Source: Boswellia sacra
Taxonomy: Eukaryota; Streptophyta; Magnoliopsida; Sapindales; Burseraceae
Reading direction: 5' to 3'
Assembly (NCBI GenBank): GCA_013180625.2
Contig: SNVD02014720.1
Location: 1 to 64,000 of the forward strand
Length of the DNA: 64,000 nt
Part shown: piece by piece, positions 47,917 to 48,567 of the stretch
How positions within the stretch are numbered: the first letter of the stretch is position 1
Layout of the letters: every line of letters begins with the position of its first letter
Position numbers and translations under genes: made by a program
The notes under the pieces: model-generated
The model's database searches: none
The model's input: only the letters and a program-made list of their open reading frames with translations
What the model was told of the DNA's origin: nothing

Positions 47917-48567
47917 TTACAAACGGAGGTTTAGATCCAATTTGCACTTTTTGTTTTGCCCTCCTGCCCAATTAATTTGAGTACCAGCTAGGTCAGGTTC
48001 ATACTCAACTTCTTATAATTTGTCAAGTAACTCGCCAGCAGAAGTAGCAGAAACAAGGATCTATCTCATCGAATGAGGGATAAAATTTTGTTCCACAGCT
48101 GCATCAACAAAACTTATTAAAGGATCAAAGAAATTGTTAACATTCAACAAACCTATGGGTTTTTGATGGAGATTCAGTTGGGCCCAAGAGGCAATTTGAA
48201 AAATTTCTTCGAGAGTACCAAAGCCACCTGGTAAAGCAATAAAAGCATCTGAATTGATGAGCATATGTGCCATGCGTTCATGCATAGAGGAGACTTGTAA
48301 CTCATGCCCAACCTTTTTTCCAACAATGCTTTCTATAGCTAAAGCTTTAGGAATAACTCCTAAAACTTGACTACCTCCTACCCGTGTAGCTCTTGACATA
48401 CAACCCATTAACCCGAGGCTACCTCCCCCATAAACCACATGAATCTTTCTTTCAGCCAGTAGTCTACCAAGATAATTTGCTGCCTTGATAAACTCTTCAC
48501 TTTTACCCGGTCGAGATCCACAGAATACACATATCTTTTGGATTCGACGTTTTGAAGTTCCCTCCAT
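47917..48567 (-). pseudogene. LOG: LOG-like cytokinin riboside 5'-monophosphate phosphoribohydrolase (two stops)
   Basis: Intronless frame of 216 codons plus stop with C-V-F-C-G-S, Y-G-G-G-S-L-G-L-M-G and P-G-G-F-G-T-L-E-E, the LOG signatures for cytokinin ribotide hydrolysis. The usual M-H-x-R-K is M-H-E-R-M. Two in-frame stops (TAG at 48061-48063 after ~168 codons, TAA further on) both look like C-to-T changes of Gln codons, so the frame was intact until recently. The tail ends N-K-K-C-K then L-D-L-N-L-R-L. By eye it is roughly 60-65% identical to the copy at 2225-2874. It starts about 150-190 nt after the integrase end and lies inside the LTRs, so it is element cargo, not a host gene. Confidence 0.93.

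What the first reader, a model, noticed from the sequence alone, without database searches (positions are those of the whole stretch)
47917..48567. A cytokinin-activating LOG gene is cargo of a complete LTR retrotransposon
Seen: an intronless 216-codon LOG frame with P-G-G-F-G-T-L-E-E lies in sense between integrase and the 3' LTR of an element bounded by paired LTRs and AACTG duplications. Known: LOG makes active cytokinin from ribotides, and Athila elements carry extra genes here (often env-like). From memory, a survey of extra ORFs in plant Ty3/gypsy elements (Steinbauerová and colleagues, about 2011) mentioned LOGL4-like ORFs in two Athila-like elements, so this may be a further case of a rare, little-studied class. 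Inference: the element could alter cytokinin in the meristem cells where it transposes.
Basis: partly seen in the sequence, partly recalled or inferred. Interest (0 to 1): 0.9.

Follow-up and report, generated by a model that had tools for sequence, protein, structure and literature searches.

The report
Retrotransposon carrying hormone and virus-like genes
A family of plant jumping genes carries a copied hormone-activating gene and, in some members, a gene resembling a plant-virus silencing suppressor beside it; both look conserved among relatives in several plants, although the copies in this window are broken.

Summary
The LOG frame is real: it lies in sense inside an LTR element with AACTG target duplications, a primer site and a G-rich tract. 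LOG in Athila-like elements is already in print. Three things go further. (1) The window holds a second, diverged LOG (2225-2874, one frameshift) behind another integrase end; pairwise dN/dS is 0.25, in the range of the element's own genes. (2) LOG relatives form one clade apart from the host LOGs sampled and share a basic, leucine-alternating C-terminal tail (at least 2 of 3 leucines in 83 of 83 full-length listed rows; 0 of 120 host rows). (3) Between integrase and the second LOG lies a 180-codon frame matching carlavirus nucleic-acid-binding protein families (PF05515, PF01623), with 233 database relatives; gene models join it to integrase (Rhamnella) and to LOG (Rhamnella, Orobanche). Best reading: an accessory module kept by selection that probably eases silencing and conditions the host cell. 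Anatomy and constraint are shown; function is inferred. I found no report of the NABP part in the papers searched.

The parts
45213..45217 (.). Target-site duplication AACTG (element 1)
45218..46593 (-). 3' LTR of element 1
   Evidence: direct repeat with 54202-55570
46594..46603 (-). G-rich tract before the 3' LTR, polypurine-tract-like
   Evidence: by eye
47917..48567 (-). LOG of element 1; open for 168 codons, then in-frame stops at codons 169 and 187
48978..51806 (-). RT, RNase H and integrase ORF of element 1
   Evidence: Pfam RVT_1, RT_RNaseH, rve, Integrase_H2C2; end of the region out of frame
51831..53663 (-). gag ORF of element 1, main part
   Evidence: PF03732
53648..54103 (-). gag start ORF of element 1, overlapping in another frame
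   Evidence: no Pfam match of its own
54179..54195 (-). Primer-binding-site-like TGGCGCCGTTGCTGGGG (tRNA-Asp type, recalled)
54202..55570 (-). 5' LTR of element 1
55571..55575 (.). Target-site duplication AACTG (element 1)
2..541 (+). Integrase C-terminal end of element 2 (rest lies before the window)
   Evidence: 72.5% to element 1 over 102 residues; open frame
1070..1609 (+). NABP-like frame of element 2; start region out of frame
   Evidence: PF05515 E 4.3e-10, PF01623 E 4.7e-5; 233 relatives; start region
2225..2874 (+). LOG of element 2, one frameshift near 2419-2425

Best explanation
A lineage of Athila-like Ty3/gypsy elements in eudicots carries a 3' accessory module: a LOG enzyme gene, probably captured once as a spliced message and since given a basic, leucine-alternating tail, and in at least some members a carlavirus-type nucleic-acid-binding protein (NABP) between integrase and LOG. 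Selection has kept the reading frames along the lineages (LOG: two DNA copies and protein conservation; NABP: protein conservation only). Most likely (inferred) the NABP-like protein weakens host small-RNA silencing and/or acts in the nucleus, while LOG raises active cytokinin in the expressing cell, so that the element is expressed in dividing cells that contribute to the germ line. The two window copies are decayed members.
For: LOG in the same place after integrase in two diverged copies; dN/dS 0.25, pN/pS 0.38 with bootstrap 0.30-0.50 over 214 codons, against pN/pS 0.22 for integrase and 0.36 and 0.59 for gag. One clade of element-type LOGs, 99/91; PGGxGTxxE in 101 of 120 listed relatives; tail in 83 of 83 full-length rows and 0 of 120 host rows. 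NABP families above cut-off, 58 of 63 members match PF05515; gene models integrase-NABP (P0320) and NABP-LOG (P0332, P0349, P0360). Carlavirus p12 is a nuclear activator and silencing suppressor (PMC7588395, abstract and opening text).
Against: Both window LOGs and the NABP start are broken. Element 1 has no NABP between integrase and LOG. The N-terminal LOG piece alone is weakly constrained (pN/pS 0.57, bootstrap 0.34-0.95). My motif patterns for the arginine region and GGG.GLMG fit 88 and 93 of 120 relatives against 120 and 120 of 120 host proteins. The zinc-finger spacing differs from carlaviruses (103 of 120 against 0 of 120). The NABP model is weak with no significant fold match. The LOG motif does not settle the product: some plant LOGs make mainly the riboside (PMC11593424, passages). 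No expression data. Database lists favour open frames.
Confidence: 0.5

Rival explanations
1. Passive passenger: LOG was transduced by read-through and is carried without benefit, decaying as copies age.
For: Both window copies are broken; LTR divergence 0.054 leaves time for decay after insertion.
Against: dN/dS 0.25 between diverged copies; tail conserved in 83 of 83 full-length rows; relatives in rosids and asterids.
Confidence: 0.12
2. The element LOG matters for something other than free cytokinin: a phosphohydrolase making the riboside, or a nuclear protein whose EAR-like tail recruits a co-repressor.
For: Conserved basic LxLxL tail absent from 120 host rows; plant LOGs with the motif can make riboside.
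Against: PGGxGTxxE kept in 101 of 120 relatives, which suggests an enzyme; EAR resemblance is recalled and untested.
Confidence: 0.25
3. LOG is a host retrogene beside or under a transposon rather than element cargo.
For: P0005 of Xanthoceras, the nearest outside relative, looks like a host gene with an intron-like insert (-free reading; tree).
Against: Same position between integrase and 3' LTR inside element 1, after integrase in element 2, and joined to NABP in Rhamnella and Orobanche models; 56 of 120 listed relatives come from one genome, Reevesia, with 18 chromosome prefixes.
Confidence: 0.04
4. The NABP-like protein is not related to carlavirus NABP but is an unrelated small zinc-finger protein of the element.
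For: Different cysteine spacing from carlaviruses; weak model and no fold match at E 0.001.
Against: The PF05515 match covers residues 36-141 and is above the curated cut-off in the window frame and in P0241; 58 of 63 members match at E up to 0.01. Of 18 non-significant fold matches 7 are named silencing suppressor or nucleic-acid-binding protein of plant viruses.
Confidence: 0.2

Closest known systems
LOG/YgdH-carrying Gypsy elements of Citrus and Populus (PMC9289625, section 12 read; it cites Steinbauerova et al. 2011, whose 'two Athila-like elements similar to LOGL4' is recalled, paper not held)
   Same: A LOG-type frame as extra domain of a Gypsy-type LTR element
   Different: Here a second diverged copy, a conserved tail, constraint by dN/dS, and a NABP-like neighbour in element 2
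Plant LOG enzymes (AtLOG3 2a33, AtLOG8 1ydh)
   Same: Fold family, PGGxGTxxE, length
   Different: Intronless frame inside an element; separate clade; basic leucine-alternating tail
Carlavirus nucleic-acid-binding cysteine-rich protein (PF05515, PF01623; for example chrysanthemum virus B p12)
   Same: Family match above cut-off; basic stretch followed by four cysteines
   Different: 182 residues in element relatives; C-x2-C-x4-C-x3-C rather than C-x2-C-x12-C-x4-C; encoded by a retrotransposon
Env-like 3' ORFs of Athila and Calypso elements (recalled; mentioned in PMC7264820 passages)
   Same: Extra ORF between integrase and 3' LTR, in sense
   Different: Neither LOG nor NABP matched an envelope-like family in the Pfam scans made

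Membership tests
Ty3/gypsy LTR retrotransposon (element 1) | Paired LTRs with target duplication, gag, RT-RNaseH-integrase order | tested here: met
Athila lineage | Place in an RT/RH/INT tree | not tested
   no reference set at hand; PF03078 (Athila ORF-1, in 16% of Athila elements per PMC6317226 passage) not matched in the four frames scanned
LTR element (element 2) | Paired LTRs and target duplication | not testable with these tools
   5' part lies before the window; 3' LTR not identified; integrase end present
LOG (cytokinin riboside 5'-monophosphate phosphoribohydrolase) | PF03641 fold family with PGGxGTxxE | tested here: met
   NCBIfam equivalog CtkRMPhLog 105.9 bits, below its cut-off of 300
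LOG (cytokinin riboside 5'-monophosphate phosphoribohydrolase) | Releases free cytokinin base | not testable with these tools
   needs an enzyme assay; motif is not enough
Carlavirus NABP (PF05515, PF01623) | Curated Pfam score | tested here: met
   40.4 against 23 and 23.7 against 20.9 bits
Carlavirus NABP (PF05515, PF01623) | C-x2-C-x12-C-x4-C zinc finger as in the carlavirus of PMC8839810 | tested here: not met
   0 of 120 listed relatives; 103 of 120 have C-x2-C-x4-C-x3-C
EAR-motif repressors | LxLxL motif that binds TOPLESS | tested here: inconclusive
   LxLxL in the last 7 residues of 76 of 83 full-length rows; binding not testable here

The most novel reading that the evidence does not exclude
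An old eudicot retrotransposon lineage works like a host-conditioning virus: a carlavirus-related suppressor protects its RNA from small-RNA silencing and reprograms transcription, and a captured, retailored LOG pushes the cell toward cytokinin-driven division, so that the element amplifies in future germ-line cells. The resemblance also raises the possibility that plant RNA viruses and retrotransposons have exchanged a silencing suppressor, in either direction.
Probability: 0.28. Interest if true: 0.92.

Novelty: new variant of a known kind. Interest (0 to 1): 0.68.

Why it matters
Hormone manipulation by a transposable element, with a virus-type silencing suppressor beside it, would be a new way for a transposon to bias its own inheritance, and it can be tested with open copies that the databases hold from Populus, Rhamnella, Reevesia and others. 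It also matters for annotation: Populus proteins named LOGL10 in public records carry the element-type tail, so counts of host LOG genes may include transposon copies.

Tried and rejected
Viral contig scans with NABP and LOG confirmed no relative. The NABP structure model was weak (mean pLDDT 67.7, pTM 0.32) and its BFVD search gave no match at E 0.001; I give it little weight. NCBIfam had no family for NABP. A comparison of NABP and LOG divergences over 7 presumed pairs gave r 0.73, reached by 92 of 5040 permutations; it rests partly on two close Orobanche models, on short LOG pieces, and on two pairs joined only by equal contig lengths (8723 and 2128; some lengths near 1000 or below coincide too), so it is weak. 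A NABP or a homologous spacer between integrase and LOG of element 1 was sought and not found. TATA-like stretches before both LOG frames were seen by eye and not counted as evidence. P0005 (Xanthoceras, intron-like insert, no tail) was first grouped with element LOGs, then set apart, where it is their sister; I take it as a possible host gene. One search used one LOG codon twice and untrimmed LTR ends; one search repeats both without that (214 codons; 1368 sites) and its values are used.

Full report
What is there. The LOG frame is on the minus strand, ATG at 48567, in sense with gag-pol of element 1. Element 1 runs from 45218 to 55570 with AACTG on both sides, LTRs of 1376 and 1369 bases, a primer-site-like TGGCGCC stretch and a G-rich tract. 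LTR divergence is 0.054 (59 transitions, 12 transversions, 1368 sites). With commonly used plant rates (recalled, 7e-9 to 1.3e-8 per site per year) that is about 2 to 4 million years. The copy is decayed: LOG has stops at codons 169 and 187, gag-pol is in three ORFs, and the integrase end continues out of frame.

A second copy. At 2225-2874 (+) lies another LOG, 70.8% identical in DNA, with one frameshift, behind an integrase end at 2-541. Its 5' part is outside the window and its 3' LTR was not identified, so that it is an LTR element is inferred from the integrase. Pairwise dN/dS (Nei-Gojobori) over 214 codons is 0.25, pN/pS 0.38 with bootstrap 0.30-0.50. For 102 integrase codons pN/pS is 0.22 (synonymous sites saturated), and for gag against a third element 0.36 and 0.59 (148 and 188 codons). 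LOG has thus been constrained about as much as the element's own genes. The N-terminal piece of 66 codons alone is less clear (pN/pS 0.57, bootstrap 0.34-0.95). Part of the constraint could date from before capture if there were two captures; the tree argues against that.

Relatives of LOG. Of 7987 database proteins at E 1e-3 (from 7999 scored candidates) the best 120 are listed: 56 Reevesia, 8 Diplodiscus, 5 Populus, 1 each Parasponia, Paulownia and Xanthoceras, 48 without an organism (my count of the listing). The 56 Reevesia rows bear 18 different chromosome prefixes, as expected of a mobile sequence. The named plants span rosids and asterids (lineages of Reevesia, Populus, Xanthoceras and Paulownia looked up). 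That each listed protein sits in an element was not shown; for Populus the LOG domain in LTR elements is in print. In a careful tree of 43 rows the 28 element-type rows are one clade (99/91), with the window copies in different subclades (98/91 and 97/92) and P0005 as sister. Host rows were only AtLOG3-like proteins and an AtLOG8 segment. PMC11593424 (passages) describes four groups of vascular LOGs, so a closer host group may be missing, and a single capture is likely but not proven.

The tail. Of 83 listed relatives of 214-222 residues, 83 have leucine at two or three of positions -5, -3, -1, and 76 have LxLxL in the last seven residues; of 120 host-type proteins none has two of the three. 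In 77 of 78 relatives with LxLxL near the end at least two of the five preceding residues are K or R. In alignment A3 the three leucines are 96-98% conserved, beside a variable linker. In element 1 the tail lies beyond the stops; in element 2 it is present in its frame. The pattern recalls the EAR repression motif behind a basic patch; this is a lead, not a test.

The catalytic motif. PGGxGTxxE is found in 101 of 120 relatives and 113 of 120 host proteins; my patterns for the arginine region and GGG.GLMG fit 88 and 93 of 120 relatives against 120 of 120 host proteins each.

The second cargo gene. In element 2 a 180-codon frame (1070-1609) between integrase and LOG matches PF05515 Viral_NABP (E 4.3e-10) and PF01623 Carla_C4 (E 4.7e-5), both above cut-off. 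Its start region is out of frame in this copy. Of 277 candidates 233 are relatives at E 1e-3, 120 listed; 13 of the 120 name an organism: Populus 2, Rhamnella 4, Xanthoceras 1, Orobanche 6. In alignment A2, 58 and 57 of 63 members match the two Pfam families at E up to 0.01. Of the 120 listed, 103 have C-x2-C-x4-C-x3-C and none the spacing given for a carlavirus (PMC8839810 passage). P0320 (Rhamnella) joins integrase (67.6% to element 2) to NABP; P0332 (Rhamnella), P0349 and P0360 (Orobanche) join NABP to LOG. These are predicted gene models that run neighbours together, which is what makes them evidence of order. Element 1 has no NABP that tblastn finds.

How it may work. Carlavirus p12 is a nuclear transcriptional activator and a cytoplasmic silencing suppressor, with an overall reduction of small RNAs (PMC7588395, abstract and opening text). 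[quoted passage not shown] LOG makes active cytokinin (established knowledge), although some LOGs make mainly the riboside. A suppressor plus a cell-division signal would favour an element that must be expressed in meristem cells. This step is inference. Against it: no expression data, broken window copies, NABP absent from element 1, a different zinc-finger spacing, and a weak structure model.

Literature. The LOG/YgdH domain in LTR elements of Citrus sinensis, Citrus clementina and Populus trichocarpa is in print (PMC9289625, section 12 read), citing Steinbauerova 2011 (not held; its content recalled). For NABP in LTR elements I searched Carla_C4, Viral_NABP, PF01623 and PF05515 (two papers, on glyoxalases by title) and carlavirus with retrotransposon or Gypsy terms, and saw no report in the listings. 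Supplements and most subscription journals were not searchable. PMC3136472 (passages) reports, among plus-strand viruses, only a betaflexivirus replicase-like sequence in cucumber.

Limits. The source plant is not identified. No plant genome collection was available, and the genome tool did not complete. Protein lists favour open frames. Athila membership was not tested by a tree.

Noticed in passing
60916-63998: A third element of the same LTR family (LTR 87% identical to that of element 1) with gag frames on the plus strand, running off the window end; whether it carries LOG cannot be seen.
   Followed up: partly
18952-20675, 24082-25878, 41822-40062: Three copies of a repeat, 91-95% identical, with internal units of about 65 and 191 bases.
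   Followed up: no
39061-42193 and 57628-60692: Diverged inverted copies of other retroelement stretches around element 1, which seems nested in older elements.
   Followed up: no
1842-2033: Tandem repeat of two units, 85% alike, between the NABP-like frame and LOG of element 2.
   Followed up: no
47568-47702 and 3007-3152: A stretch downstream of LOG is 72% alike in both elements although non-coding by eye.
   Followed up: no
P0046, P0087, P0088: Populus proteins named LOGL10 in public records carry the element-type tail; P0046 and P0087 fall in the element clade, P0088 was not put in a tree.
   Followed up: partly
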